A DNA stretch of 64,000 bases, taken from contig RDOC01000003.1 of NCBI GenBank assembly GCA_011364985.1, positions 1-64,000 on the forward strand, written 5' to 3'. Positions 2,737-58,694 of this stretch are shown piece after piece. The translations under genes were made by a program, and so were the position numbers. Origin of the DNA: Candidatus Thorarchaeota archaeon (lineage in GTDB: Archaea > Asgardarchaeota > Thorarchaeia > Thorarchaeales > Thorarchaeaceae). Below the pieces are notes generated by a model that was not told the DNA's origin, made no database searches, and saw only the letters and a list, made by a program, of their open reading frames with translations. The first letter of the stretch is position 1; each line of letters opens with the position of its first letter.

Positions 2737-3489
2737 GTGAAGAGTTTGGAGGTTGACCTGTCACGACACGACCCTAATAACTCCGACGACCCACCACCCA
2801 GCGGGGACCCAGAGGAGGGAACAGACTTCGATGGAACAGAACAAGGACTCTCACCAAGAACTCAGGCTGACGTGGATAGCCATCTATCAGATGCTGCGGA
2901 AAATATTGATTTCTATTGGACAGGTCCGTGGCCGTTACTGCACTCCTTGGTGATTGCTCAGGCCATCTTTCACATGGCTGTGGACCTCTTGGGCGACACT
3001 GTAGTGTATGAATCAGACTCAATGGGACTCAATGATGACGACTTCATTAATGCAATGTGGATATCGGCATTCATGTCCGAGATTTACGGATGGATCTACG
3101 GATTAATATTAGCATGTGCTATAGCTGAGAAGATCCCGACAGGTTGGTGGGGAATTGCCGGCGTGTTAATTACCATGGCTATGACACTCGGGTTTGCATG
3201 GTGCAATGCACATTTGTTAGTGGATAATGGCATATGGGCAGCGGGAGCCGCCGCTTTGTTCTTTCTCATCTTAGGAGTATCTTGTTTCTGCATCGCAGCA
3301 GGACTAAAAACCATAGGCGGTAGTGGAGCCACAGCGATTCTAAAGGCCCTTGCCTTTCTCGCGGGGACGACATTCGAAGCGATCAAGGCTGCCATCCAAT
3401 TCACAGTATGGAGCAAAAGCGTTTTTGTATTCCTAGGCTTTGTATTCGCATGCATCTATTGTCCACATTTCTTAAACTACGGGAGTTAA
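2737..3489 (+). CDS. DLSRH/TGPWP-family membrane protein, intact copy
   Basis: The best-preserved member of the local family: 250 residues, no interruption. Residues 4-14 read EVDLSRHDPNN, followed by a Pro/Asp/Gly-rich, probably disordered segment to about residue 60. Then comes WTGPWPLLHS and about five hydrophobic segments (roughly 65-85, 105-130, 135-160, 165-190 and 225-245). The DLSRH leader is therefore likely soluble and N-terminal to a membrane domain. The GTG start lies only a few codons before the motif and no strong ribosome binding site is visible, so the true start is uncertain. Seven bases separate it from 3497-4144, which suggests one transcript. Function unknown. Confidence 0.65.
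   Translation: MKSLEVDLSRHDPNNSDDPPPSGDPEEGTDFDGTEQGLSPRTQADVDSHLSDAAENIDFYWTGPWPLLHSLVIAQAIFHMAVDLLGDTVVYESDSMGLNDDDFINAMWISAFMSEIYGWIYGLILACAIAEKIPTGWWGIAGVLITMAMTLGFAWCNAHLLVDNGIWAAGAAALFFLILGVSCFCIAAGLKTIGGSGATAILKALAFLAGTTFEAIKAAIQFTVWSKSVFVFLGFVFACIYCPHFLNYGS
2747..2797 (+). repeat. DLSRH leader repeat, copy 3
   Basis: In frame at the very start of the intact gene 2737-3489, reading EVDLSRHDPNN. The downstream part is expanded with Pro/Asp/Gly codons before a conserved DGT. Confidence 0.6.
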
Positions 3490-4168: not shown

Positions 4169-4243
4169 TATCACCCTCCTCACGGACCTCTCCAGACACA
4201 ACCTCAATCACCCCGGCGGGGCGCAGCTGCATGATGGAACTCC
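4169..4243 (+). repeat. DLSRH leader repeat, copy 4
   Basis: Reads TDLSRHNLNHP and then QLHDGTPEGL. It is in phase with the following frame but has no usual start codon upstream. Confidence 0.6.
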
Positions 4244-9146: not shown

Positions 9147-10467
9147 AGAGAAGGATGCACTGGATTTGGCAGTCAGTTCCTATGAAACAACAGAGTTCTA
9201 TAGATGGTTCTATGACAAGCACAAGATTGATCCGTATAAGACGACGTATGATGCACTTCCTATTCTCCGTAGAAATGAGATATTCGAGTATCAGGAACTC
9301 ACAGGAAAGCCTTACTATGGTATGGATATCCCAGATACCGATCTAATCAGATTGGAGACTTCCGGATCAACAGGAAGACCTCTTCAAGTAATCTATACGA
9401 AAGAAAGATGGGAAAAGGCGTACGGGATTCTTCGACACGGTTTTGACCAATTTGGAATACATAAGAAGATCTTCACGTACCATTCCATTCCACTCGAAAA
9501 GATGCTTGAACCTCTTATGAGTACATGGGGCTTGGAAACGAAATTCATTTCATCTTCAGATATGCTTGACGTGAAGCTTGTAAGGGATGCCATAAAAGCA
9601 GAGAAGCCCGACGTGATTTACGACGCGACAGGCCGATGGCTTCTCCATCTGCTTGAAGGTGGTTTACCACTAGGAGAAATGGGTGTGAAAGCTTTCCTGA
9701 TAATGAGAGCTGACAATCACGACATACAAACGCTCAGGGAGAAAGGGATGAATCTGCTGTTCTTTCTTCCATCAACAGATCTCGGGTGCATTGCTTGTTC
9801 GTGCCCTCATTCAGTGAGCTTTCATCTCGCTGAAGAGCCACTGTTTCATGTTTCCAGTAATGATAGACTGGATTCAGTGGGAGAAGGAGAGCTGGTAGCT
9901 ACATTCCCATTTTCTATCCTTCCCCTGATTAAGTACACCAACAACGACTATGTTAGACTTGTCAAAAAGGATTGTATATGTGGTTTTTCAGGTCGATTTC
10001 TGCAATTCATCGGTAGGTCAATGCAAGTCAAGGTGCCAGATGTTGAGGGATGGTACGTCGACGTAGACAAGGTGTACCACGAGTTCTTTGACAGATACAA
10101 GAAGCCCATACTAATGATGTTTATGACTGCAAGAATCAAAGGAAGAGGAAAAGCAGTTGATATGCTTGCGACATTCATCGAAAGCCACGAATCCAAAGAC
10201 CCCATCCTAAGATACGACCTTTCTAATGACGTTGTTTCTGTTGGAACTGGGAAATACCTTCCTGATTTGGTCGATGTGCTTCCCGTGATTATTGTTCCCA
10301 GCGGGAGCATTCCCATTATTGATAAGAAAGGGACAAAACCAAGAATGTTCCTCGATATCCGCGCAAGAACTCCTCAACAGGAATACAATGCCTTGATTGA
10401 AACGCTGAATGAACTTGCATCAGCGAAGATTCAATTCGAAGATCAATCCAAAACTAGCAATCTATGA
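9139..10467 (+). CDS. PaaK-like adenylate-forming enzyme
   Basis: About 442 residues of the phenylacetate-CoA ligase (PaaK) superfamily. The phosphate-binding loop ETSGSTGRPLQV lies near residues 73-84, and FPFSILPLIKYTNNDYVRL is the usual A5/A7-type region before the C-terminal subdomain. Cys pairs (CIACSC and CIC) resemble the metal-binding cysteines of PaaK-type enzymes. ATG 9139 overlaps the end of the radical SAM gene by 8 bases, so the two are translationally coupled; a GTG at 9130 is an alternative. It should activate a carboxylate as an acyl-adenylate. In this operon that could be the peptide C-terminus, a side chain or an acyl cap; which one is unknown. Confidence 0.75.
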   Translation: MFEEKDALDLAVSSYETTEFYRWFYDKHKIDPYKTTYDALPILRRNEIFEYQELTGKPYYGMDIPDTDLIRLETSGSTGRPLQVIYTKERWEKAYGILRHGFDQFGIHKKIFTYHSIPLEKMLEPLMSTWGLETKFISSSDMLDVKLVRDAIKAEKPDVIYDATGRWLLHLLEGGLPLGEMGVKAFLIMRADNHDIQTLREKGMNLLFFLPSTDLGCIACSCPHSVSFHLAEEPLFHVSSNDRLDSVGEGELVATFPFSILPLIKYTNNDYVRLVKKDCICGFSGRFLQFIGRSMQVKVPDVEGWYVDVDKVYHEFFDRYKKPILMMFMTARIKGRGKAVDMLATFIESHESKDPILRYDLSNDVVSVGTGKYLPDLVDVLPVIIVPSGSIPIIDKKGTKPRMFLDIRARTPQQEYNALIETLNELASAKIQFEDQSKTSNL

Positions 10468-11313: not shown

Positions 11314-11450
11314 GGGCCGGTAGATCAGCTCGGTTGTTCCGTTCATTCGTGTGCGGAGCAGGCAGAGATCGCTTCCTTGGCACTTGTCAAGGATTAGCCT
11401 GACTTCCAAAATGGAAGAGGTCGCGTGTTCGAATCACGCCCGGTCCACCA
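11314..11450 (+). tRNA. tRNA-Ala(GGC) with two introns, CCA encoded
   Basis: Acceptor arms GGGCCGG and CCGGTCC pair fully and include the G3:U70 wobble that identifies tRNA-Ala. D stem GATC/GATC, anticodon stem CTTCC/GGAAG with TTGGCA in the loop (anticodon GGC), and T stem GCGTG/CACGC with TTCGAAT are all present, and CCA ends the gene. Two insertions must be removed: about 29 nt in the D loop (roughly 11336-11364) and about 29 nt after position 37 (roughly 11383-11411). The second is the canonical archaeal intron site; the first is not. Exact splice sites can shift by a base or two. Confidence 0.85.
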
Positions 11451-11677: not shown

Positions 11678-11786
11678 CTCTTCGCACTTGTGGCGCACTT
11701 CGCGTGCATCCAAAGTGGAGGAGGTCGCGAAACTCCGTGTATCTTTCGACACGGGGCGCGAATTCGAATCTCGCCCGGTCCACCAT
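11678..11786 (+). pseudogene. 3' part of a second tRNA-Ala (CGC anticodon), 5' half missing
   Basis: From GCTCTTCGCA onward this aligns with the 3' two thirds of tRNA-Ala(GGC): a loop with anticodon CGC, an inferred 29-nt intron (about 11688-11716), GGAGG AGGTC, a T arm holding an inferred 31-nt intron (about 11733-11763), TTCGAAT CTCGC, then CCGGTCC and ACCA. The 5' acceptor and D arm are absent on both sides, the anticodon stem lacks two bases, and position 53 mismatches 61. It is either a tRNA 3' remnant left by integration or the 3' half of a split tRNA. CACAAGTG (11649) and CACTTGTG (11686) are complementary. Confidence 0.6.
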
Positions 11787-45015: not shown

Positions 45016-46332
45016 ATGGAGAAATCAGACATCATGCATGAAACACAGAACGAGAGTTCGGAATCTGAAAAACGAAAAGCAATCATACGGCAGGTTACCC
45101 TAAGGGAGTTCGACAAAGACCAGAACCAGAAAGAGCAAGATGTTTCTCTGCGGGATCTCGTTGATTTTCCGTCCACAACATACAGTACCTTTGGCATCTA
45201 CAACTACCCTGCGAAGTTCATCCCTCATGTTGTCAACTATGTCCTTGAGAACTACGGGGAGGAGGGGATGACAGTCTTCGACCCATTTGCAGGTTGTGGC
45301 ACCGTCGGACTTGCATCTCGTATCTATGGGCATGGCTACGAACTCTGGGATCTAAATCCCATTCTAGAACTGCTGCATCGAGTAGCGATAGCCGCGCCTG
45401 TCAATATCGACATTGTATCCCTTGTGGATCATGTTCTTGAATATGAGGAATCATATATCCCAAAATGGTCAAACTTTGACTACTGGTTTGCAGAAGACCT
45501 TCAGAATCTTCTTGCACAATCTTGGGGATTCTATCACGCACTAGAAGACGAAAGTGTGAGGGATTTCCTTGCTGTCCCGCTCCTTAAGGTAAGTAGACAC
45601 TTCTCGTATGACGATATGGGTCGTATGAAGCTATCGAAGTCCCCGAAGTCAAAGGCCCGTGTGAAAGAGATTTTGAAACAGGACTGGAAATGGTTGTTCC
45701 GTTCGATGCTCATCGATGAGCTCAATGATTTGCACAAGAAGCAGAAGGAATATCAATCACTCAACCCCGTCGATGTAGAGGCAACTATACGTGCAGGTGT
45801 GGACTCTCTCAAGGAGAGCCTTCGAGAAGACCGTGATATTCTCATCACCTCTCCTCCGTATCTTCAGTCACAGGAGTATATGAGGCAGGCAAAGATGGAC
45901 CTGTTCTGGCTTGGATACTCCGATAAGGAAGTAAAACAGCTTAGCAAGATGGAAATACCCTATCGAGATTTGCATGAGATAGACATCAAATCTGAAACAT
46001 ACAGACGAGTGAGGAAAGTCATAGGTGAAGAGCATATTCAGGACGTCTATGACAACTATTTCCGGGGTGTGACTCAGTGTCTTGAGCGACTGTCAACAGA
46101 CATCTCGACTTACCTCTTCTTCTTCGTTGGAAGGTCAAGTATGAGGGGCAGACCTGTCCCCATCGACACGATACTAACTGAACACTTCACCCAATTGGGC
46201 TGGACGCATGAGAGAACACTAGTGGATACTATTGTTTCACGGCGGATGTTCTCATATGGTGTCAATCCCGCCACAAATCAGCGAGATGTGAGGACCAAAA
46301 CAGAGCATCTAATCGTCCTTAAGAGACCTTAA
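45016..46332 (+). CDS. DNA methyltransferase (N4-cytosine/N6-adenine type)
   Basis: A 438-residue methyltransferase. VFDPFAGCGTVGLASRIYGH near residues 92-110 is the SAM-binding motif (DPFxGxGT), and TSPPYLQSQEY near residue 278 is the catalytic S/N-P-P-Y motif, so it methylates an exocyclic amino group of DNA. The sequence between them probably holds the target recognition region. Thirty-five bases downstream is a small PD-(D/E/Q)XK-type nuclease gene, giving a probable type II restriction-modification pair. The recognition site cannot be read. Confidence 0.8.
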   Translation: MEKSDIMHETQNESSESEKRKAIIRQVTLREFDKDQNQKEQDVSLRDLVDFPSTTYSTFGIYNYPAKFIPHVVNYVLENYGEEGMTVFDPFAGCGTVGLASRIYGHGYELWDLNPILELLHRVAIAAPVNIDIVSLVDHVLEYEESYIPKWSNFDYWFAEDLQNLLAQSWGFYHALEDESVRDFLAVPLLKVSRHFSYDDMGRMKLSKSPKSKARVKEILKQDWKWLFRSMLIDELNDLHKKQKEYQSLNPVDVEATIRAGVDSLKESLREDRDILITSPPYLQSQEYMRQAKMDLFWLGYSDKEVKQLSKMEIPYRDLHEIDIKSETYRRVRKVIGEEHIQDVYDNYFRGVTQCLERLSTDISTYLFFFVGRSSMRGRPVPIDTILTEHFTQLGWTHERTLVDTIVSRRMFSYGVNPATNQRDVRTKTEHLIVLKRP

Positions 46333-46367
46333 GAAGTTGGAGCGCTCCGAATAATCAGAGGATAGTC

Positions 46368-46877
46368 ATGGGCCGGGTGACCGATCTCAATATCACTGGC
46401 AAGGATGAGAGTGCCTTTGCAGCAGACATGGGTATGGCACACGAGTTTCTAGTAACTGCAATACTAATTCGGCTTGGTTTTGAAGTCGGTGTTATGCAAG
46501 TTTCGAGAACCCCGTATGATCTCTGGCTTCTTGCATACGACCGGCCCGATGGCAACAGTGTTTCCTTGCGGGTTCAGATAAAGACAGTTTCTAAGGGTGG
46601 CACCATCAAACTCACAGGTGGAACCCGTGGGGGCATAGACCGCGAGTACAAGAGTGACGTGAAAGAATACAAGTACAGCACCGAGCATAGCGACCTACTC
46701 ATTGGGGTTGACAGGAATACATTCGATTTGTATTTGGTACCGACAAGCTTTCTTGACGATTGGGGGAAGTCCAAGGCTGTGTCACTGCTTAAGCCCTTAA
46801 AGAACAACTGGGACTTGCTGATGAACTGGAATGATGAATTCATTATCTCACTTCGGAATGATTTGATCCAGTCATGA
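46368..46877 (+). CDS. putative restriction endonuclease, PD-(D/E)XK-like
   Basis: A 169-residue protein. GMAHEFLVTAILIRLGFEV is the helix that precedes the core; YDLWLLAYD supplies the acidic residue and SLRVQIKTVSKGG the Q-x-K catalytic strand. This is the arrangement of small nucleases related to DUF4365 and other restriction endonuclease-like proteins. It directly follows a DNA methyltransferase, so it is likely its partner endonuclease. Gln replaces the usual Glu, which occurs in some active families. Confidence 0.65.
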   Translation: MGRVTDLNITGKDESAFAADMGMAHEFLVTAILIRLGFEVGVMQVSRTPYDLWLLAYDRPDGNSVSLRVQIKTVSKGGTIKLTGGTRGGIDREYKSDVKEYKYSTEHSDLLIGVDRNTFDLYLVPTSFLDDWGKSKAVSLLKPLKNNWDLLMNWNDEFIISLRNDLIQS

Positions 46878-48802: not shown

Positions 48803-48877
48803 GCGGCCGTTGTCTAGGGGTTAGGATGCAGCCCTTCCAAGGCTGGGGCCCGGGTTCAAATCCCGGCGGCCGCACCA
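48803..48877 (+). tRNA. tRNA-Gly(TCC), no intron, CCA encoded
   Basis: GCGGCCG pairs perfectly with CGGCCGC. D arm TTGTCTAGGGGTTAGGATG, anticodon arm CAGCC-CTTCCAA-GGCTG (anticodon TCC), T arm CCGGG-TTCAAAT-CCCGG, then ACCA. It is 75 nt with no insertion, unlike the other tRNAs here. Its 3' end is the probable integration target of the island downstream, since near copies occur at 55551 and 58664. Confidence 0.95.
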
Positions 48878-49009
48878 CATCATAGCCCATAGAACATGGC
48901 TGAAGTGAATGAACCCCACCTACGGACTTCTGTGTTCCATCCGTCTTCTGCCCGATGTCGCCATCAACTCCTGGAGCCACCCAGTAGCAAGCAAAAGCAT
49001 TGGCTGCAA

Positions 49010-50692
49010 TCATCGAGACACGGTCCCTCCTACAGCCCTGACTTCTTTCTCCTGCTTTATTCCAGTCGCATCTTTCCTGGGAGCAGTGAGCCTTTCCACA
49101 GCATTTTCCACGGCACGGTCATCATCGCCATCCCCGTCCTCGTCACCGAATTCAAGGACACTCGTCTGAGCTGAGCGAACCACCGCGGACTCCCTCGGGC
49201 TTGATGCACTACCCTTGCGAGGGAGTGAGGACTTCTGTTTAGGGGAACGAGCCCCCCTAACAGCCTTCGGGACTGAGCCCAGCCTCCGCTCGGGAGTGGC
49301 CCACCGCCCTAGTCCATTCTCACTCCAAAGTGAAGGAATGAGCGTGATAAGTCGACGCGCTATGTTCAGGGAACCGTTGCGGTCCGCGTTTGTGCGGAAC
49401 CCACAGGTGTGGCACACGAAGAGAGACTGCCTCGGTCGGATTCCCTGATGCCCGCACTTCCAACAGGTGATGGAGGTCCAGTTCTCCGGGATCACATGGA
49501 AACGACTTTGTTTACCCTCTGTCCGCCAACCGAGTTGTTCGAGGCCGTGCTTCAGCGTGCGCGTCACCCGCCCGAAGCACCATCTGTGCATAAGGCCTCG
49601 AAACCGCTTTCCCTGATAGTTGCCCTTGCGGGCCGTGTTGCGGATGCCCTTGAGTCGACCGATGGCCACATGCACGACATACCGCTCACTGAGCCCCCCT
49701 ATGTATGAGAGAAGCCAACTCACCGTGAGCCTATCATACTCCTTGGACACATTCTCGCGCTTCGACCGAAGCCCCTTAAGTTTCCGAACAACATTGTCAT
49801 ATCGAAGCCCCCGGTCCCTGCGCGTGTCAGCCTCGTGCTGGAGATTAGCCACCTGCCGGTCGTATCGCCGCATGAGTCTGACCTTGTCATGTTGGACGAA
49901 ATAGCGGGTTTCCGAAACACGCGTAGGCGTCAGCAACGTCGTGCACACCGCCCTGTTAATCCCGAGGTCGATACCAAGAATCGCCGGGGGAAGGCCCCGC
50001 TTCTCCACCATGGTTTCAGGAATCCGGATGGCCACAGCGGCCCACCACTTTCCTCGCCTATCGGTGAAGACCTGCACGCTCTTCTCATTCCCGCGTTCAA
50101 GCTGCTGGAGATGGAAGGGCGCCGTCTTCAGGGGCACAGTCAATCTATCATGCACCTGCCTGCCCTCTGCGACCGAGTCCAATGAGTCGCGGAGCTCCAG
50201 CCACCATGTGGCCACGGTATTCTCATGCTTTACAAGCCTAGCGCGATACGGAATGAAGATTCGTCTGGGAATTCGCCTGTCCCGATTGACCTGACTGGGG
50301 CGGGAATGTCTTCCCCCACCCCTCCGAAGAGCCAGATAACTCTCATAGTTCGCTGCAGCCACCCTCCGACACTCGGAGAGTTCGTTAGCCGATATCCTCG
50401 GGAAGCGCGCTTTGAGGTCATGCTCAACAATCAACCTCTGCTTGCCATCTCCAGAGACCCGTTCGGCTGTCATAGTCAGGGTATGCAGCTTGCTCTCATC
50501 GATTCGCTTTCTGTTCACCCCCCTCAAGAGCTGTTCCTCGTTCTCCTCGATAATCCTGAAGAACGCCCTGATGACTCTGGTGTCTCGGCCCACCATCTGG
50601 CGCAGCCGCTGTTGCGCCCTCGTGGTCATCATCTCCCAGTTGATGGGAATTTTGACCGTAATCACTGGTTGCTGGTTTTTCACCATAGCCAT
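49010..50692 (-). CDS. TnpB-family (IS200/IS605 OrfB-like) protein, unusual RuvC site
   Basis: A 560-residue TnpB-like protein. ILGIDLGINRAVCTTLL carries the first RuvC Asp. TSITCWKCGHQG and FVCHTCGF form the zinc finger, and TNADRNGSLNIARRL holds the last Asp. The segment usually reading E-D-L has VAIGRLKGIRN instead, so the central Glu is Gly at this position. The protein may be nuclease-dead, or the Glu may have moved, as reported in some TnpB lineages. A long Ser/Arg-rich C-terminal tail follows residue 470. No TnpA gene lies nearby. The composition is GC-rich, unlike the host. Confidence 0.8.
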   Translation of the reverse strand: MAMVKNQQPVITVKIPINWEMMTTRAQQRLRQMVGRDTRVIRAFFRIIEENEEQLLRGVNRKRIDESKLHTLTMTAERVSGDGKQRLIVEHDLKARFPRISANELSECRRVAAANYESYLALRRGGGRHSRPSQVNRDRRIPRRIFIPYRARLVKHENTVATWWLELRDSLDSVAEGRQVHDRLTVPLKTAPFHLQQLERGNEKSVQVFTDRRGKWWAAVAIRIPETMVEKRGLPPAILGIDLGINRAVCTTLLTPTRVSETRYFVQHDKVRLMRRYDRQVANLQHEADTRRDRGLRYDNVVRKLKGLRSKRENVSKEYDRLTVSWLLSYIGGLSERYVVHVAIGRLKGIRNTARKGNYQGKRFRGLMHRWCFGRVTRTLKHGLEQLGWRTEGKQSRFHVIPENWTSITCWKCGHQGIRPRQSLFVCHTCGFRTNADRNGSLNIARRLITLIPSLWSENGLGRWATPERRLGSVPKAVRGARSPKQKSSLPRKGSASSPRESAVVRSAQTSVLEFGDEDGDGDDDRAVENAVERLTAPRKDATGIKQEKEVRAVGGTVSR

Positions 50693-50950
50693 CGCTCCTA
50701 CAATATAAAGTTCTGACCTGTTCAGTCAGTGGAGTTCATTCGCAACCTTGTGCTTGCAAGACTGTATTGAACTCCTACAATTAGTAGGTATGAAACAATA
50801 TAAAGTTATGAAGCAATTTAAATAAACGAAAAGTTGAATTAGTCAGTCCATTCCTTCTTTATCAAAATCTAAGTAGAAAAAGATTTAATCTGCTTTTGAT
50901 ATAGTCACAAAAAAGTCTATAGTTTTCTACACGAAAGGAGAGTGGCGCGC
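50693..50950. promoter_or_regulatory. divergent region between tnpB and the giant gene, with repeats
   Basis: AT-rich. ACAATATAAAGTT occurs twice (50701 and 50796) and CTCCTACAAT twice (50696 and 50773). GGAGTTCA (50732) and TGAACTCC (50769) form an 8-bp inverted repeat. These may be an IS605-type end hairpin and promoter elements for the two divergent genes. Confidence 0.4.
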
Positions 50951-53900
50951 ATGAGAGGGAGCCGCGGCCCTCAGGTGAAACCGTATCCGAAACATCCGAA
51001 CAGGGTGCTGGCACGAGCGATGAGGACAGGCTTATCCACGGCGGTATACCTGCAGCGAACCATCCGGAATAGAATCACCCGCCACCTGTACGATAGCTCC
51101 CGCGATATACTCCACAGGTACACCGAGGCTTACCAAATCGCGAAGGCCTCGGGCGTGCCGGACTTCACCCACATCATAAAAGCGGAACACAACATCAGGA
51201 AGAACGGCTTGGACATGCTGGAGGAGAACGCAGCCCTCTACGGGTGCACAGAAACAGTGCGGGCGCGACGCTGGTACGAGGAAGTGGGCCCCCTGAACCA
51301 GCGGCTCAATGTCGGGGGCGCGGTGCTGCGGGAGATGGGTGCAATCTACTACCCTATGGAGCGGCCGCAGCCGCTCTTCGACGACAACGGCGAACACATC
51401 GGTTACGGCTATCCTGGTGACTCACGCTGGCCTGCCTATCCTCCTGTTCACCGGTTCCTGAGCGAGCTGGACTTCATGGACGCCCTCCGCCAGCACATCC
51501 AAATTCTAAACACCGATGCGTACATCCACGATGTGTCGGTTCGGGACATACGCCGATACAGCAACCTCCTTATCCTCCGTGCACGAACCTACCTTGACTA
51601 CCTGTACACCGAGCACGAGTATGGCTCGGCAGGGTTCAGAAACGGGACGGTCCGCCTGCTGCGGGAAATCCGCAATGATATCTCCAAGCACCATAGTGTC
51701 CGTGTAGGCGAACTGGAATCCGTGTCGTTGCATGGTAGACATACACGTCTAGTCTTCAGCATAGACTTTTTCAAAGAGCAGCTGGCAAAGGCTCGGGAGA
51801 GCGGTATCAATCCAGCTGTGACTGAGGAGCTTTCACGAATCCTGACCGGTGGGTCTGCGGTCTTGGAGGAGGAAGGGAAGGAAGCTCCCTGCCTAACCAG
51901 TGACGATGTGAAACACTTGTGGGAGAGGGCTGTGCGAAGGACAAAGAAGGTGGGAGCCCACGTTCACAGGCGCATTACCGATATGTTCGACCGGTTTCTG
52001 AATGTGCAGAGGGCCATCCGCAACGATGACCGCGATAGTTTTGGAGGTGGTTTCAGGATTGTCGCAGAGATGCCACTGGGAACCGAACTGGGGAAAGGCA
52101 GAGCGGATCTGGTGGTGTTCAGGAGGGAAACCGCGCCCGCAGGTCTACGTACCCTCTGGCGCCCAGTAATGGTGGTGGAGATTAAGAGCCGCTGTGGGTT
52201 CAAGTGGTATATGGTGCCTGAACGAAGGTCTTCTCTATCCAGGAAGAGGTACGGAATGGTGCAGCGGGTGGTCCCACGGTTCAGGCTCTCTCTGCGCCCT
52301 CTCAGTCCCAGCGAGTGGGAGCAGGTCGTCGATGGCATTCCCGAGCCGAACACTGTGATCCAGCTCGATACCTATGCGGAAGCCCTGTCTGAAGCCTTCG
52401 GGTCGATTGCGCATCTTGACAGTCCTCCGAGAGTGATTCGGGCAACACTCGTCATTGACCCCACCGATGAGAACAGAAAGAGCAGGTCTATGATACAGAG
52501 TTTCCTCCTGAGTGCTCTTGAATCTTGCCTGACGGAGGACCTGTCCCAAAGCAGGACCGCCTATAATGTTTCGAGAGATGGACTCAGACCACGCATGGCA
52601 CTCGTGGTCCATAGTCAGGAATACTCTCCAAACTACGGACAACCGCAGGTGCCACAGGAATGGAAACCGCCCTATGACCCACTGATTGGTGCTGGCACCA
52701 GAGCCCGACGCTTCATTCTCTATGTTTCCGCGGCGTCTCCAACGTCAGCAGGGCTTTCGGCCGCTTGGATTGCAAGACACCATCACGGTTTGCAGACAAT
52801 CCATGAGTTTCGAGAGGCGTCTCCTGACCTGCGTGTTTTTTGGCTTGACATGGCCAATGAGTTCCCAACGCCCACTCTCGCGGAGGCGAGGTTGCGGGCT
52901 CGAGGACGGGAGGCTGAGAACAGTCTGTCAGACGCTGTCAAAGTAACTTTCCGCTCCATAGAGTTCAAACAGCTTTTTGCTGATATCCAGACGTATCTCT
53001 ACAGCGACGGCCCGATGGTGGACCTGTCGGCTGTATTGGGAGACCAAGTGAAACAGCCCCGCATGCTTGTTGTGTCAGGCTGGGACATTATTGACAGCTC
53101 AACGCCCTCACCCTACCGAACCCGCATGAACAGACTGCTGGCTGAGATAGTAGACCAATTGCCTGATGATGAGCAAACCATCATCCTGTGGCTTTCAAGG
53201 CCGGTGAAATATGAGAGAAGAACACCAATCTACTCAACCAATTGTTTCATCCCTGTTCGGGACACCTCTCCCCTCCTAGGCGAACTGGATGAAATCATCT
53301 GGAATCTGCCATGCGGACCTGAGCAAGTCATCTATCCTGATTCTTGGCAGCGCCCGTCCACCTCCAAAAGCCCCATGTTTGATGATATCAGGATCGTGGT
53401 TGCCCAGTCTCTTCAAGGGTTCGAAACCTCGCTCATCCATATCCCGGCTCTCAGACATTGGTCTGCCAAATTCAGAACCGAAGAATACAATCACTCCAAG
53501 AAAGAGATACCGGAACCACGGGAACATGCCGTGCCCGGGGCAGGGATACGAGAGAGAATCAGGTCGCTGGCATTGACCCTAATTCCCTGGTTGGTTGACC
53601 TGTGGCCCGATACACATCTTTCACCTGATGTGAACCTTTCCGATTCTCTCCGTAACTCCTTAGATGAGATTCACGACTCTGCAGAAGGCCTGACAGTTAC
53701 AAGACGTTCTCTCTCCCGCGAACCCACAGATGTCCCAAGCCTGTTGAATAGACTACAGTATCGTCCTCCCCGAACAAGAGGAGGCAAGGCATTTGCCGAC
53801 ATCTTTCTCGGACAGATCAATGCTCACCGACTATATCGTGCTCGCCAGCAGAGCAAGTCCAAACCGAGGCCCTCATATCCTAAGACTTTCGAGCCCCCCA

Positions 53901-55519
53901 AGCTTAGGATTGCTAGCTTTGGCCAGATGGTCTGCTCAGAGGACGCTGACCAGCCGCTCTACATAGTGGCATTGGAGGACCCAGAGAATCCTGCCAGAGT
54001 TCTTGTGGGATTCCTAAACAGCTACGTACAGATTCGCACTGACGGACTGCAGTGGGCTGAGAGTCGTATCTCGGAGCAGGTAGATGATATCCAGCAGGTC
54101 ATGAGCTCAGGCCATCGTTTCTCACTGGCTCTTCAGCAAGACGACGAAGGCTGGCTGCTCTGGCAGAAGGACTCAGAGAGATCAGATTGGACTTTTGAAA
54201 GCACTATTGACATCATTAGGGGAAGAACGATTGGCTCGACCGCAATGATTCGGGCAATCAGGTACCTTCCCTCCTCCGACTCCGTGACTCAATATACCAG
54301 TGACATTCGCTTTCCCGCGAATCTGACCGGCCGACTCGACAAGGCTGTCGCTCGCATCTTGAAACATATTCGGCAGCAGAAGGAGGTTTCAGTCAAGCTG
54401 TCGTGGACGGATAATGGCTGCACGGTGGACTTCAAGACCGGGGATGATGTGCTGGACACAGTAGAACATCTCTATACCTCCAATCTTGTCGAAACCTTAA
54501 CTCTCACACGAGGAGGGTTTCCAGTGAACCTCTCATCGGGCCATCTAGTCGTTTGGGATCGGTTTCGTGACATTGACTATGGAGAAGTATCTCTCCTGAT
54601 AGATGTAAGTCAGACTTTTATTCCAGCTACGACCGAGATTGGTTTGCCTGCAAAACTCTCAGATCTGTTGTGCCTTCCCGAGGGAGAGGAGCTTGAGTTC
54701 CAGCTCTCGCACGAGCGAGATGAATGTCCGCTCTTCTCAGGACAAGGAGAAGACCATGGCAGGTGCTGGCGACTCTCTCTTGTGGGTGAGAATGAGGCGG
54801 TATCCAGGATTTTTTGTGGTTTCCTTACAGACCGAGAGGTATTCCTCCGCATCGGCTCCAAGAGTGTGGTGTTCGGGTCGAAGGTTTACCCAATCAAGGT
54901 AGATGTTCCATCAGCACTGCAACAGGAGGGTATGGTTTTTCGGGAGAGTCCACTCATTCGCAAGATACTCCAGAGGAACGGTGTTCGGGCGTCTCCACTG
55001 AAACCAGGAGCGTATCTACAGGCCGCCCAGCAAGAGTGGGAGATATCTGTAACTATCAGGGATGACTGGCTGACGTGGGTTGCAGTATCCACTCTAACAG
55101 GAGAAAATTGGAAGAACCGAGCTTTCACCTACGAACTGCAAGTTGTCCGAGAGCTCTCCGATATCTTGGATGAGCTCTGGGGATATATCATATCGGAGAT
55201 TCCCGAAAAGTTCATTCATAATTCAGAACTCCAAAAAGCCAGATTGAGAGGCATTCTTGAGAAACGAGGCCTGAGTGATGCCTTACTGCAAGTCAGGCTG
55301 GAAGCGACCATGAAACGGAGAATCCTCACTGTGGAAGCGCGACGAACAGGGAATGGTGATGAGATGATTGACAGCATTTCGTGGGAACTCCCACGTAGAG
55401 TCAAGGGGGACCATCTCATAGACAGTATTGTGCAACGCCTGGAGGAGGGTACATGGGCAAGATTCGACGTAGTGAATAAAGAGGAATTCTTCGAAACACT
55501 AGACCGGCTTCTTGATTGA
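50951..55519 (+). CDS. giant protein (about 1,520 aa) with PD-(D/E)XK nuclease domain
   Basis: The longest gene in the window. The N-terminal 350 residues are helical and basic. Near residues 370-420 lie GRADLVVFRR and PVMVVEIKSR, the D and E-x-K of a PD-(D/E)XK nuclease, and about 60 residues on VIQLDTYAEAL matches the Q-x3-Y motif of RecB/Cas4-type nucleases. The remaining 1,000 residues have alternating alpha/beta segments (RMLVVSGWDIID, TIILWLSRPV) without a recognisable Walker motif. The ATG at 50951 sits 10 bases after AAAGGAG. It is divergent from the tnpB gene and ends 31 bases before a tRNA 3'-end copy. It is probably a defence or mobile-element nuclease; the function is not known. 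Confidence 0.6.
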   Translation: MRGSRGPQVKPYPKHPNRVLARAMRTGLSTAVYLQRTIRNRITRHLYDSSRDILHRYTEAYQIAKASGVPDFTHIIKAEHNIRKNGLDMLEENAALYGCTETVRARRWYEEVGPLNQRLNVGGAVLREMGAIYYPMERPQPLFDDNGEHIGYGYPGDSRWPAYPPVHRFLSELDFMDALRQHIQILNTDAYIHDVSVRDIRRYSNLLILRARTYLDYLYTEHEYGSAGFRNGTVRLLREIRNDISKHHSVRVGELESVSLHGRHTRLVFSIDFFKEQLAKARESGINPAVTEELSRILTGGSAVLEEEGKEAPCLTSDDVKHLWERAVRRTKKVGAHVHRRITDMFDRFLNVQRAIRNDDRDSFGGGFRIVAEMPLGTELGKGRADLVVFRRETAPAGLRTLWRPVMVVEIKSRCGFKWYMVPERRSSLSRKRYGMVQRVVPRFRLSLRPLSPSEWEQVVDGIPEPNTVIQLDTYAEALSEAFGSIAHLDSPPRVIRATLVIDPTDENRKSRSMIQSFLLSALESCLTEDLSQSRTAYNVSRDGLRPRMALVVHSQEYSPNYGQPQVPQEWKPPYDPLIGAGTRARRFILYVSAASPTSAGLSAAWIARHHHGLQTIHEFREASPDLRVFWLDMANEFPTPTLAEARLRARGREAENSLSDAVKVTFRSIEFKQLFADIQTYLYSDGPMVDLSAVLGDQVKQPRMLVVSGWDIIDSSTPSPYRTRMNRLLAEIVDQLPDDEQTIILWLSRPVKYERRTPIYSTNCFIPVRDTSPLLGELDEIIWNLPCGPEQVIYPDSWQRPSTSKSPMFDDIRIVVAQSLQGFETSLIHIPALRHWSAKFRTEEYNHSKKEIPEPREHAVPGAGIRERIRSLALTLIPWLVDLWPDTHLSPDVNLSDSLRNSLDEIHDSAEGLTVTRRSLSREPTDVPSLLNRLQYRPPRTRGGKAFADIFLGQINAHRLYRARQQSKSKPRPSYPKTFEPPKLRIASFGQMVCSEDADQPLYIVALEDPENPARVLVGFLNSYVQIRTDGLQWAESRISEQVDDIQQVMSSGHRFSLALQQDDEGWLLWQKDSERSDWTFESTIDIIRGRTIGSTAMIRAIRYLPSSDSVTQYTSDIRFPANLTGRLDKAVARILKHIRQQKEVSVKLSWTDNGCTVDFKTGDDVLDTVEHLYTSNLVETLTLTRGGFPVNLSSGHLVVWDRFRDIDYGEVSLLIDVSQTFIPATTEIGLPAKLSDLLCLPEGEELEFQLSHERDECPLFSGQGEDHGRCWRLSLVGENEAVSRIFCGFLTDREVFLRIGSKSVVFGSKVYPIKVDVPSALQQEGMVFRESPLIRKILQRNGVRASPLKPGAYLQAAQQEWEISVTIRDDWLTWVAVSTLTGENWKNRAFTYELQVVRELSDILDELWGYIISEIPEKFIHNSELQKARLRGILEKRGLSDALLQVRLEATMKRRILTVEARRTGNGDEMIDSISWELPRRVKGDHLIDSIVQRLEEGTWARFDVVNKEEFFETLDRLLD

Positions 55520-55550
55520 GAGCAGTTCAGGTGGTCGCCTCCAAACCTGC

Positions 55551-55581
55551 GACCCGGGTTCGAATCCTGGTGGCGGCACCA
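55551..55581 (+). repeat. tRNA 3'-end copy, left border of the Argonaute unit
   Basis: A T arm and acceptor sequence starting GACCCGGGTTCGAATCCTGG and ending GGCACCA. It differs from the copy at 58664-58694 at only two of 31 positions and resembles the 3' end of tRNA-Gly(TCC). Upstream bases (CAGGT...ACCTG) could form an anticodon-like stem, but no 5' acceptor exists, so it is not a working tRNA. It is an apparent attachment site. Confidence 0.65.
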
Positions 55582-55595
55582 TTCTTAATATCCTG

Positions 55596-58541
55596 TTACA
55601 TGTAGAATCTATAATGTCCTTGAACTTCTTTTCCTTCAGGAATCTCAGAAAGAACAGCTCCTACTTTTTCTGGGAATATTATCGTTATTGGCAACTTATC
55701 TCCAAAACTAGATGTATTCCAATTGATTTTTGTCAGCTTTAAAATCTCACTCGCAACAAAATCCATCTCTGAGTCACAATCGAGATCAAGTAGTAGTGGT
55801 CTCGGAACTCTTGGACCTGGATAAGTCCTCAATCTAGGTATGTAACCTGAAGTGTACAGAAGACATTGTTTCTCATTTATTTTTATCATCGTTCCTCTTA
55901 ACACTGGATATTTACCAGTTCTTACAAAGCGGAAACCATGTACCCGTCCAATACTAATAAAATCAGCAGAAGCTCGACCTATAGCATTGAGAAATCCTTG
56001 ACGTTCATCAGAGTTGAATCTGGATAATTTATGTATGACCACTCTTGCAGGCTTTGTTCTTGATTTGAGCGTATAGGTTTCAATTGCTCTGTTAAGTAGG
56101 TCAAATGCGCTATCCTTTTGAAGATGAACCTCTTTTGATTTTTTGTCAACTTCTACCTTTGCCCCTTGGAGCACAAAACCGTCACCGCTATGGGTAAAGA
56201 CCTGCGCCATTGACGCCTTTAAATTGCCTAAAGGGTCATCTCTCCTCGAATAAAATGCAATTCCAACATAACAAGTATCCTGTTCTAGTTTTGCTAGTCT
56301 CCATGGTTTCCCATTTGCCTTGTAATACATGGCAGTAGAGAAATTCCAACTAAATGTCGCTGGATTTTGAACCAAGTCTGCTCTTCGTGGATAATCTAAT
56401 ATTGCTCTACCATTTCTTTCGATTAGCAATTGCACAGGAATTCCATAATCCATCACAGCTCCCTTAATTGCATCATGCAAATCAAAACTTCGAAGGTCTG
56501 GTTCTGCAAAATCGAAATCAACAAGTGTGGTCTGCCCTTCCTCTTTGGCCTTAGCGAAATCTTTCTCCTCTTTAGTATATCGAGGCCTTTTGGCCCATCT
56601 GGTTTTTTTACTTATTCCACAATAATCATCAATTGCATCTGGAACTATACACAATATCACATCCGGACGGTTATCTTCTATTGCAATTGATTTCACTTTG
56701 TCATGATACAACTCAACTGCAGCATGAATACGTTCGTGAACACTTTGTATTGAAATGATTCTATCGACCTCTGATTGCGTTATTGTTTCGTTCCAAGAAT
56801 TTGAGTACTTGAACTGGCAGTTAACAGGTGAATCAGTATTAAAACCAGGATAACTAGGAAACAAGAATTTATTTTCACTTGGGCAGGCAATTTCCTGACC
56901 TAGCAAATCTATGATGTTTTTTGCAACTTCGCGTCCAGATCCAGTACCAATTATACCTAATCTGACTTGACCAATAGGCTCTTCATCTTTGGCATGATAC
57001 GGTCCAAAATACTTCAGTCCAATTCTCGGGTCTTCCTCTTCCCTCTGCCCTCCAAAAAGTAGTTTTGGTTCTTCGATAAACTGTGACTTGAATTCTGTAC
57101 CTACACTCTCCCTATCAAATGCTAGAGGCCCTTCTTTTTGTTCCTTTGCAGGTGTATCTCCATCAATCCCTATATCCATATACGCACGAATGAATTCTGA
57201 AGAGATGGTGATTCGATTTTCAGTGAGAATCTCACCATTTTCATCTTCAGTTATTACTTGACCAAATACAATATGTCCGAATTCATCTTTAGGTAGTTTT
57301 GACCTCCAGAATTTCAAATCGTTATGATAGCTACTGTTGTATCTAAGTCTAAGGAGTCTGGTTATTGCAGTCCCGTCAATTAGATTATGTACAGGAGTTA
57401 CACCATCATTTGTTAGTACAATACTAGGTTCGACTTTCAGATAATATTGATTATTTATCCATTGAAACTGCAGTGACACTGACCAATGCCGCCATCTATA
57501 TGATGTCACTTGACTCACGTAGAATTTCCTTACAACTTTGCGGGGCTTTCGGGAACTTCCATCTCCCCACCCTTCGTAGCATACCTCGTCCTTACAGGTA
57601 TAGAAAAGAGCACGAGGTCGTGATTCTGAATCAAGAACCATTCTTTTCTTCTTCATTGCTGCAGTTGCTTCAATGTTAAGAAGATGGGTTATTAGGTTCC
57701 TCCCATCATCACTTTGAACTAGTATTTCAGTATCTATCTTTTCTTGGCTATCTGGAACAATGTAGTCTTGAAGCTTATGCTCATCAAACCTACAAAATGA
57801 ATGAAGACGCCTACCCTGTTTTGTAAATGGTTTATCACCTGTTCTAGAAAGTGGAAAATCATCAGTTTCAATTCGGACGGTATAGACAGTTTTTGGTATT
57901 TCTAAAACTTTCAGTAAATTGCCAAAAATGACCTCTTCTACTTGGTCGGGCCTACCAGTTAACAAGGACATTCGATGTTGATCTAGCTTTATTCTTTTCT
58001 CAATCTCTCTATGCTCTTTATCATTGGCTACAATACTTTGAGTGCCTCGTCTTGTCAGAACATCGTTCCTTCTGAAAGCATACTTTCTCTTTCCATCTTT
58101 TATGTAAATTCCATCCTTAATCGGTTTTAGAACTGACGTTGAAGGGGGAACATAAACTACAGCAAATTGTTTTGCTAATATCACACCCTTTTCTTCAACA
58201 TGTCTTTCAAATAATCTAAAACCTAATTCGATCTTTTCAGAACTAAAGGAATTGAATTTTTCTTGGAGCTGTGCTTGATCAATCTGTATCCTTTCATCTA
58301 AGCCGACAGGAATGATTTTCTTTTTCTTATCCAAAAATCCAAAGAGAATCCAACCTGAGCCTTTGTTTGCCATAGCAAAGATGTGTTTCGCAAGTTTCGC
58401 AAAATCGGATTGCTGAGATATATCTATGGTGAGTTTGAAATCAATGTGTGGTTCCTCAGACATTTTATCCCAGATTAGATCTAACATTAAATCTCCTAAT
58501 GGATCAGGATGAATCTCATTATCTCCATGAATAACTACCAT
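55596..58541 (-). CDS. single-chain AlbA_2-APAZ-MID-PIWI Argonaute
   Basis: A 981-residue protein. Residues about 20-175 match an AlbA_2 (Schlafen-type) domain: DFKLTIDISQQ, AKHIFAMANKGSGWILFGFLD, then Y-FRRNDVLTRRG. The middle (about 280-500) is APAZ-like, with VEPSIVLTNDG, LKFWRSKLP, FGHIVFGQVI and EEPKLLFGGQREEEDPRIGLKYFGPYH. MID-like RLGIIGTGSG, SYPGFN and DVILCIVPDAID follow, then PIWI: CYVGIAFYSR, MAQVFTHSGDGFVLQG, RVVIHKLSRF, LLYTSGY. The catalytic Asp positions read Ala (GIAF) and Leu (HKLS), so slicing is unlikely. The domain order is that of short Argonautes fused to an effector. AlbA_2 is the likely effector. AT-rich and flanked by tRNA 3'-end repeats. Confidence 0.8.
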   Translation of the reverse strand: MVVIHGDNEIHPDPLGDLMLDLIWDKMSEEPHIDFKLTIDISQQSDFAKLAKHIFAMANKGSGWILFGFLDKKKKIIPVGLDERIQIDQAQLQEKFNSFSSEKIELGFRLFERHVEEKGVILAKQFAVVYVPPSTSVLKPIKDGIYIKDGKRKYAFRRNDVLTRRGTQSIVANDKEHREIEKRIKLDQHRMSLLTGRPDQVEEVIFGNLLKVLEIPKTVYTVRIETDDFPLSRTGDKPFTKQGRRLHSFCRFDEHKLQDYIVPDSQEKIDTEILVQSDDGRNLITHLLNIEATAAMKKKRMVLDSESRPRALFYTCKDEVCYEGWGDGSSRKPRKVVRKFYVSQVTSYRWRHWSVSLQFQWINNQYYLKVEPSIVLTNDGVTPVHNLIDGTAITRLLRLRYNSSYHNDLKFWRSKLPKDEFGHIVFGQVITEDENGEILTENRITISSEFIRAYMDIGIDGDTPAKEQKEGPLAFDRESVGTEFKSQFIEEPKLLFGGQREEEDPRIGLKYFGPYHAKDEEPIGQVRLGIIGTGSGREVAKNIIDLLGQEIACPSENKFLFPSYPGFNTDSPVNCQFKYSNSWNETITQSEVDRIISIQSVHERIHAAVELYHDKVKSIAIEDNRPDVILCIVPDAIDDYCGISKKTRWAKRPRYTKEEKDFAKAKEEGQTTLVDFDFAEPDLRSFDLHDAIKGAVMDYGIPVQLLIERNGRAILDYPRRADLVQNPATFSWNFSTAMYYKANGKPWRLAKLEQDTCYVGIAFYSRRDDPLGNLKASMAQVFTHSGDGFVLQGAKVEVDKKSKEVHLQKDSAFDLLNRAIETYTLKSRTKPARVVIHKLSRFNSDERQGFLNAIGRASADFISIGRVHGFRFVRTGKYPVLRGTMIKINEKQCLLYTSGYIPRLRTYPGPRVPRPLLLDLDCDSEMDFVASEILKLTKINWNTSSFGDKLPITIIFPEKVGAVLSEIPEGKEVQGHYRFYM

Positions 58542-58663
58542 AATATCTCAACTATCTTCTTTGTATAATGCATCCCCCTCAAGCGCGCAATGCAAATACA
58601 GAACTACTTCATGTATATAGCCTAATCAAGTTTATTCTAATTCTAAGTATTAATTGGAATCAT

Positions 58664-58694
58664 GACCCGGGTTCGAATCCCGGTGGCCGCACCA
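58664..58694 (+). repeat. tRNA 3'-end copy, right border of the Argonaute unit
   Basis: Begins GACCCGGGTTCGAATCCCGG and ends GGCCGCACCA, 29 of 31 positions identical to the copy at 55551-55581. It has no anticodon arm or 5' half. Nep1 begins on the opposite strand eight bases later, so this is the island/chromosome junction. Confidence 0.65.

What the first reader, a model, noticed from the sequence alone, without database searches (positions are those of the whole stretch)
55596..58541. Argonaute with N-terminal AlbA_2 (Schlafen-type) effector and dead PIWI site
The chain reads AlbA_2, APAZ-like, MID and PIWI. The two visible PIWI Asp positions are Ala and Leu, so it cannot slice. Short Argonautes usually signal to SIR2, TIR or nuclease effectors through APAZ. 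Here the effector position is taken by AlbA_2 in one polypeptide. Schlafen-type domains can act on RNA, including tRNA, so an abortive defence by RNA cleavage is possible. I do not recall a characterised system with this layout.
Basis: partly seen in the sequence, partly recalled or inferred. Interest (0 to 1): 0.88.

Follow-up and report, generated by a model that had tools for sequence, protein, structure and literature searches.

The report
Archaeal Argonaute fused to Schlafen-type nuclease
This Thorarchaeota-family genome carries a small Argonaute sensor fused in one protein to a Schlafen-type domain that keeps the catalytic pattern of human tRNA-cutting antiviral enzymes; sister systems, mostly as two adjacent genes, occur across the archaea, pointing to an untested guide-directed immune switch that may work by cutting RNA.

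Summary
ORF 55596-58541 (-) is a 981-aa protein: SLFN_AlbA_2 (29-155), APAZ (about 195-440), short-pAgo MID-PIWI (484-981) with non-acidic PIWI positions. APAZ is nearest SPARHA/SPARDA APAZ, not PAZ; every clear fold match of residues 1-195 is Schlafen-family (SLFN5/11/12/13/14, SAMD9 tRNase). It is no freak. I found the same layout fused in five genomes and as overlapping or adjacent AlbA_2-APAZ + short-pAgo gene pairs in 15 more loci, nearly all archaeal; only these two modules are conserved, often beside restriction-modification genes. The motif E-x4-D-[F/Y]-K, equal to SLFN13 Glu205/Glu210/Lys212, is invariant in the 20 AlbA_2 rows examined. Best reading: a short-pAgo abortive-defence module whose effector is a Schlafen nuclease, likely switched on by guide/target-driven oligomerisation; substrate (tRNA or other RNA) unproven. 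New here: the gene is almost the whole content of a 3.1-kb cassette between tRNA-Gly 3'-end repeats; two same-genus genomes show the empty site, and a relative's copy sits between tRNA-Ser 3' ends. No library used here names the AlbA_2-APAZ combination; published surveys may have glimpsed it under other labels.

The parts
55596..58541 (-). 981-aa AlbA_2-APAZ-MID-PIWI Argonaute gene (stop codon included)
58077..58457 (-). SLFN_AlbA_2 domain, residues 29-155
   Evidence: Pfam 2.1e-11; the only PF04326 match found in the genome; Schlafen fold
58434..58457 (-). Motif E29-x4-D34-F-K36, equal to SLFN13 E205/E210/K212; the third acid is D71
   Evidence: PMC5862951, PMC8789055
57222..57959 (-). APAZ domain, about residues 195-440
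55599..57092 (-). Short-pAgo MID-PIWI, residues 484-981; PIWI positions Ala762 and Lys838-Leu839; presumed MID pocket K693/Q704/N733 invariant
48803..48877 (+). Intact tRNA-Gly(TCC), left border of the inserted region
55540..55581 (+). tRNA 3'-end fragment 1, between the two cassettes
58653..58694 (+). tRNA 3'-end fragment 2 next to EMG1 (homology in 58664-58694), right border
55582..58694 (.). 3.1-kb cassette, 95% of it the Argonaute gene, GC 38%
   Evidence: empty sites in two same-genus genomes
48878..55581 (.). 6.7-kb companion cassette: TnpB-like ORF 49010-50692 (-) and 1525-aa ORF 50942-55519 (+), GC 54%

Best explanation
A single-chain short-pAgo defence module. The dead MID-PIWI holds a small guide (by analogy with SPARTA/SPARDA a guide RNA against invader DNA). 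Pairing with a target is passed through APAZ and drives oligomerisation, which brings two or more AlbA_2 domains together. Each AlbA_2 corresponds to one lobe of the two-lobed Schlafen core, so assembly would complete a nuclease that uses E29/D34/K36 (and D71) and cuts RNA, most likely tRNA, shutting down translation and aborting infection. Shown here: domain order, dead PIWI, conserved residues at the presumed guide pocket, Schlafen fold and invariant motif, recurrence as fusion or two-gene module across archaea, frequent restriction-modification neighbours, insertion next to a tRNA gene. Inferred: guide and target type, activation by oligomerisation, nuclease activity, RNA/tRNA substrate, abortive outcome.
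For: AlbA_2, APAZ and MID-PIWI each identified by profile and fold. E29, D34, K36 invariant in 16/16 and position 71 acidic in 15/16, matching the residues needed for SLFN13 tRNA cleavage. The same AlbA_2-APAZ/pAgo unit in fused or paired-gene form is the only thing conserved across loci, so the two parts work together. RM or OLD genes beside several independent members. TIR occurs in the same slot before APAZ in other archaeal loci, and HNH/DREN in the nearest solved kin, so AlbA_2 takes the effector place. SPARDA precedent: target-induced filaments and collateral nuclease activity (PMC12205087). Schlafen-family RNases are reported as effectors linked to prokaryotic defence loci (PMC12839542).
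Against: No biochemical or genetic evidence. The acidic residues are also present in non-cleaving SLFN5. Position 71 is Gln or Pro in one subclade (L017, L048, L049) and not acidic in L050. Nearest APAZ/pAgo relatives use HNH and DREN nucleases, so DNA could be the substrate. No viral or plasmid copy of the whole module was found. TM-scores of the AlbA_2 model to Schlafens are only 0.3-0.46.
Confidence: 0.58

Rival explanations
1. AlbA_2 is only a nucleic-acid-binding domain (the 2018 survey labels it DNA-binding) that helps the dead Argonaute hold its targets; interference is by binding, or by another, unlinked nuclease.
For: PMC6299218 treats Schlafen AlbA_2 as DNA-binding; SLFN5 keeps the acids but shows no nuclease activity.
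Against: The family keeps the Lys that SLFN5 lacks, with E/D/K invariant; in sister systems the slot before APAZ holds an enzyme; no third gene is shared across loci.
Confidence: 0.2
2. AlbA_2 is a catalytic nuclease, but of DNA, giving collateral DNA degradation as in SPARDA.
For: Closest APAZ and pAgo relatives are SPARHA and SPARDA.
Against: The solved relatives of the AlbA_2 fold with known cleavage are RNases (SLFN11/12/13/14, SAMD9).
Confidence: 0.1
3. AlbA_2 is an RNase used to make or trim the guides in cis, not a suicide effector.
For: Fusion or gene overlap keeps it next to the guide-binding module; source of guides in these archaea is unknown.
Against: Known APAZ-linked enzymes are activated effectors (PMC12205087); no sign of processing was tested here.
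Confidence: 0.08
4. The gene serves the tRNA-inserted element itself, for example by excluding rival elements, rather than general host defence.
For: It fills 95% of a tRNA-bounded cassette, and a relative also sits between tRNA 3' ends. Compatible with the main reading.
Against: No att-like repeats were found at most other family loci with the limited tRNA set used; several of those loci adjoin RM genes.
Confidence: 0.04

Closest known systems
SPARDA / SPARHA (short pAgo with DREN- or HNH-APAZ)
   Same: MID-PIWI and APAZ are the closest solved relatives (9jsb, 9qbp, 9om4); operon layout of the split members
   Different: AlbA_2 (Schlafen) instead of DREN or HNH; effector and sensor fused into one chain here
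S1A SIR2-APAZ-pAgo fusions
   Same: Single chain effector-APAZ-MID-PIWI
   Different: SIR2 NADase replaced by AlbA_2
SPARTA (TIR-APAZ + short pAgo)
   Same: APAZ and dead pAgo as sensor; archaeal TIR-APAZ + pAgo pairs were also met here
   Different: NADase effector, separate genes
Long-B pAgos with N-terminal Schlafen AlbA_2 and og_40 SIR2_1-Schlafen-APAZ (PMC6299218)
   Same: Earlier sightings of AlbA_2 joined to Argonaute or to APAZ
   Different: The first have PAZ and belong to long-B; the second also carry SIR2
Schlafen SLFN11/12/13/14 and SAMD9/9L tRNase domains
   Same: Fold and E-E/D-K-D active-site pattern
   Different: Eukaryotic, no Argonaute; SLFN core has two lobes in one chain
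CbCash (PDB 9ylu)
   Same: Prokaryote-like AlbA_2 protein in PDB with the same E-x4-D-[L/F]-K pattern and RRG motif
   Different: Known here only by its PDB name; no paper found in the library
S2B DHS-like-APAZ (recalled as RecG/DHS-like)
   Same: May be an earlier label for similar proteins: AlbA_2 domains are sometimes called RecG-related (PDB 2kyy, hit)
   Different: Could not be checked; no Schlafen assignment or function found in the papers held

Membership tests
Short prokaryotic Argonaute | MID-PIWI without PAZ, in the short clade | tested here: met
   PADLOC pAgo_I and PDB short pAgos; APAZ not PAZ
Short prokaryotic Argonaute | Catalytically dead PIWI | tested here: met
   Ala762 and Lys838-Leu839 at the Asp positions
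SPAR-type system (short pAgo + APAZ effector) | APAZ joined to an effector domain, fused to or co-encoded with a short pAgo | tested here: met
   Fused here, paired genes in most relatives
SPAR-type system (short pAgo + APAZ effector) | Guide/target-triggered effector activation and cell death or dormancy | not testable with these tools
   Needs biochemistry and challenge assays
SPARTA / SPARSA / SPARDA / SPARHA | TIR, SIR2, DREN/Mrr/SMEK or HNH effector domain | tested here: not met
   Only AlbA_2 found before APAZ; so it is not a member of these subtypes
Schlafen (SLFN/AlbA_2) endoribonuclease | AlbA_2 fold | tested here: met
   Pfam and Foldseek
Schlafen (SLFN/AlbA_2) endoribonuclease | Carboxylate triad plus Lys | tested here: met
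   E29, D34, K36 invariant, D71; third position varies in some relatives
Schlafen (SLFN/AlbA_2) endoribonuclease | Cleavage of tRNA or rRNA | not testable with these tools
   Needs an assay
Long-B pAgo with Schlafen fusion | PAZ domain and long-B MID-PIWI | tested here: not met
   No PAZ match in the APAZ-region profile search; short-pAgo profiles fit far better
tRNA-gene integrative element | Same-strand tRNA 3'-end repeats bounding the insert, and an empty site in relatives | tested here: met
tRNA-gene integrative element | Own integrase | tested here: inconclusive
   None recognised in 48878-58694; only a TnpB-like ORF, the 1525-aa ORF of unknown function and the pAgo

The most novel reading that the evidence does not exclude
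A guide-directed Argonaute, triggered by invading DNA, that switches on a Schlafen tRNA-cutting nuclease: a new class of short-pAgo immunity spread across archaea including Asgard lineages, sharing its killing domain with vertebrate antiviral Schlafen/SAMD9 proteins and moving as a one-gene cassette into tRNA genes.
Probability: 0.35. Interest if true: 0.9.

Novelty: new variant of a known kind. Interest (0 to 1): 0.74.

Why it matters
The characterised short-pAgo effectors described in the papers read are NADases or DREN/Mrr/SMEK/HNH-type nucleases. A Schlafen effector would add RNA, probably tRNA, cleavage to Argonaute immunity, would give archaea (Asgard included) a guide-directed system that uses the same catalytic fold as human antiviral Schlafens and SAMD9/9L, and, because one 981-aa chain holds sensor and effector, would give a compact programmable RNase switch that can be tested directly. 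The tRNA-bounded one-gene cassette suggests a way for such genes to spread.

Tried and rejected
Single-sequence scan of genome contigs found nothing; the alignment-based scan found 17 loci. No relative in viral contigs. Plasmid tblastn: no record covers 80% of the query, and the 15 listed match only the MID-PIWI part. The 1525-aa neighbour as partner: rejected, not shared with the neighbourhoods of the other family members and itself a multicopy family in these archaea. Sequencing error or chance fusion: rejected, since open fused frames of 41-57% identity exist in three other genomes of the family and in L009. Long-B Argonaute with PAZ: rejected. Fused form as the ancestral state: not resolved; split members group together (91/90) but the basal order of fused L004, L009, the fused trio with the window and L021 is open.

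Full report
WHAT IS THERE. The window is part of a 222-kb contig of an archaeal genome whose family includes a genome labelled Candidatus Thorarchaeota archaeon CSMAG_407: L010 from the named collection matches G028:C286 in contig length (9,520 bases), gene position and pAgo score. ORF 55596-58541 (-) encodes 981 aa. Pfam finds SLFN_AlbA_2 at 29-155 (2.1e-11). PADLOC APAZ models match about 180-440 and its pAgo_I model matches 484-981 at 1.3e-141. PDB sequences give SPARDA, SPARHA and SPARTA pAgos for 484-981. A profile of the APAZ region alone finds SPARHA HNH-APAZ (6.6e-33), SPARDA DREN-APAZ (1.5e-12) and TIR-APAZ, and no PAZ. The AlphaFold model of residues 1-195 (pLDDT 89) has as its 27 clear PDB matches only Schlafen-family structures, including SLFN11, SLFN13, SLFN14 and the SAMD9 tRNase domain. 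TM-scores are modest (0.3-0.46), partly because most targets are larger, two-lobed proteins. The full-length model (pLDDT 76, pTM 0.48) returns SPARDA/SPARTA/SPARHA pAgos as its top hits.

ACTIVE SITES. PIWI: first Asp position Ala762 (Ala/Ser in all rows); the second falls at Lys838-Leu839. The residues I take for the MID guide pocket, Lys693, Gln704 and Asn733, are invariant, with His/Arg/Trp at 689; their roles are inferred from the canonical pAgo pocket, from my own knowledge. AlbA_2: E29, D34 and K36 are invariant in 16 of 16 rows and position 71 is Asp/Glu in 15 of 16. Four more members (L048-L051) keep E-x4-D-[F/Y]-K, but L048 and L049 have Pro at position 71 and L050 has no acid there (read by eye). 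These positions align with SLFN13 E205, E210 and D248, whose mutation abolishes or weakens tRNA cleavage (PMC5862951), and with SLFN13 K212, a Lys also present in SLFN12 but absent from SLFN5 and mSlfn2, which show no activity (PMC8789055). Caution: acidic residues alone do not prove activity, since SLFN5 keeps them. SAMD9L, with a similar triad, represses translation and lentiviruses (PMC11221667).

THE FAMILY. Fused homologues occur in three more genomes of the same family (57, 47 and 41% identity; the last runs off its contig) and in L009, labelled Bathyarchaeota. Eleven further loci carry two overlapping or adjacent genes, AlbA_2-APAZ of about 460-506 aa and a short pAgo of about 500-537 aa, in records labelled Bathyarchaeota, Nanoarchaeota, Methanophagales, Methanoperedens, Micrarchaeota, Woesearchaeota, Methanomassiliicoccaceae and unnamed archaea, and one gammaproteobacterial bin; L020 and L023 are partial. 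Four more pairs, two of them divergent, come from the phylum of L011. Pfam confirms AlbA_2 in every such effector tested. The family is sparse: matches that include AlbA_2 in 2 of 394, 5 of 398 and 2 of 371 genomes in three sampled archaeal phyla, and in 4 of 228 of the window's own phylum. Four other loci in the L011 phylum carry a different domain in front of APAZ, TIR where tested (L052), so effector swapping is evident. In the MID-PIWI tree the split members group together (91/90) while the fused ones and L021 lie at an unresolved base; at least two changes between fused and split are needed.

DEFENCE CONTEXT. Comparing neighbours, the AlbA_2-APAZ/pAgo unit is the only thing shared widely across loci; three Methanoperedens-like loci share more context by descent, and the few other matches are between pairs of loci. 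Neighbours include type III RM (L012, L018), a BsuBI/PstI-type RM ending 24 bases before the effector gene (L019), HsdS ending 32 bases before it (L013), an OLD-family gene (L021) and a C5 methylase (L022). The window has a type II methyltransferase at 45016-46332, on the other side of the tRNA-Gly.

A tRNA-BOUNDED CASSETTE. The gene lies between two tRNA 3'-end fragments, 55540-55581 and 58653-58694 (last 31 nt 29/31 identical), both in the orientation of the intact tRNA-Gly(TCC) at 48803-48877. The core pattern occurs only at these three places, with zero expected by chance. In two same-genus genomes EMG1 is followed within about 10-30 bases by an intact convergent tRNA-Gly(TCC); in G001, a one-contig genome, topoisomerase IB comes next. 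Here EMG1 is followed by fragment 2, then the Argonaute, fragment 1, the 1525-aa ORF, the TnpB-like ORF and the intact tRNA. So 9.8 kb, in two tandem cassettes of 3.1 kb (GC 38%) and 6.7 kb (GC 54%), were probably inserted at the tRNA 3' end; the Argonaute gene is 95% of the first. In L010 the 57%-identical homologue also lies between same-strand copies of a tRNA-Ser 3' end: 3158-3169 in the intact gene, 4196-4207 and 9441-9452. No integrase was recognised inside. A TATA-like sequence (CTATATACA) stands between fragment 2 and the start codon, so the cassette may carry its own promoter (inference).

HOW IT PROBABLY WORKS. By analogy with SPARTA/SPARDA (PMC12205087), a guide-loaded dead Argonaute recognises an invader, and the change passes through APAZ to oligomerise and activate the effector. 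Schlafen cores are two AlbA_2-like lobes embracing tRNA (PMC5862951), and this protein has one AlbA_2 per chain, which aligns weakly with both SLFN13 lobes. I therefore predict that target-driven pairing of chains completes the nuclease. RNA, most likely tRNA, is the favoured substrate because the solved relatives of the fold with known cleavage are RNases; DNA cannot be excluded because the nearest APAZ/pAgo kin are SPARHA and SPARDA.

NOVELTY. The 2018 survey lists Schlafen in long-B pAgos and in SIR2_1-Schlafen-APAZ proteins, and 18 archaeal group-III APAZ proteins with no other recognised domain, but not AlbA_2-APAZ with short pAgo (PMC6299218). PADLOC 2023 APAZ models match only the APAZ part of these effectors. 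The Asgard defence survey reports Argonautes but a search of its text found no APAZ (PMC11291487). Prior-art risks: an S2B 'DHS-like-APAZ' label (PMC12205087), which I recall as 'RecG/DHS-like', AlbA_2 being sometimes named RecG-related (PDB 2kyy); and a 2025 preprint on bacterial Schlafens in anti-phage defence, cited in PMC12839542 and not readable here. The paper searches covered open-licence papers only. I rate it a new variant of a known kind.

Noticed in passing
window 50942-55519 (+); L038-L041, L095-L105: 1525-aa ORF of a large multicopy family in these archaea with no Pfam, PADLOC or PDB match; its sequence holds a PD-(D/E)XK-like stretch (RADLVV...VVEIKSR). Copies often lie near tRNA genes, and the copy in L102 lies between same-strand tRNA-Tyr 3'-end repeats.
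   Followed up: partly
window 11439-11450 and 11774-11785 (+): Two same-strand copies of a tRNA-Trp-like 3' end (CCCGGTCCACCA) 335 bases apart; ARAGORN calls no tRNA there.
   Followed up: partly
window 49010-50692 (-): TnpB/Cas12f-like ORF inside the companion cassette.
   Followed up: no
L021 7508-7510: In a Methanomassiliicoccaceae genome the AlbA_2-APAZ and pAgo frames are in register and separated by a single TAG; such archaea can decode TAG as pyrrolysine (own knowledge), so read-through fusion is conceivable.
   Followed up: partly
L091 8865-9181 (G005:C3): Short remnant of the same Argonaute (query residues 446-550), suggesting decay of a former copy.
   Followed up: partly
window 45016-46877 (+): Type II methyltransferase plus a 169-aa ORF that may be its nuclease, between topoisomerase IB and tRNA-Gly: the EMG1-tRNA-Gly-TopoIB interval looks like an insertion hotspot.
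   Followed up: partly
PDB 9ylu/9ylv/9ylx (CbCash): A solved AlbA_2 protein matching this family's domain, with the same motif; its biology could not be looked up.
   Followed up: no
L042 (Halorubrum lacusprofundi plasmid pHLAC01): A short pAgo annotated as hypothetical protein lies 98 bases before a DUF499 gene, a family I associate with BREX-like systems, with no gene listed just upstream of it.
   Followed up: no
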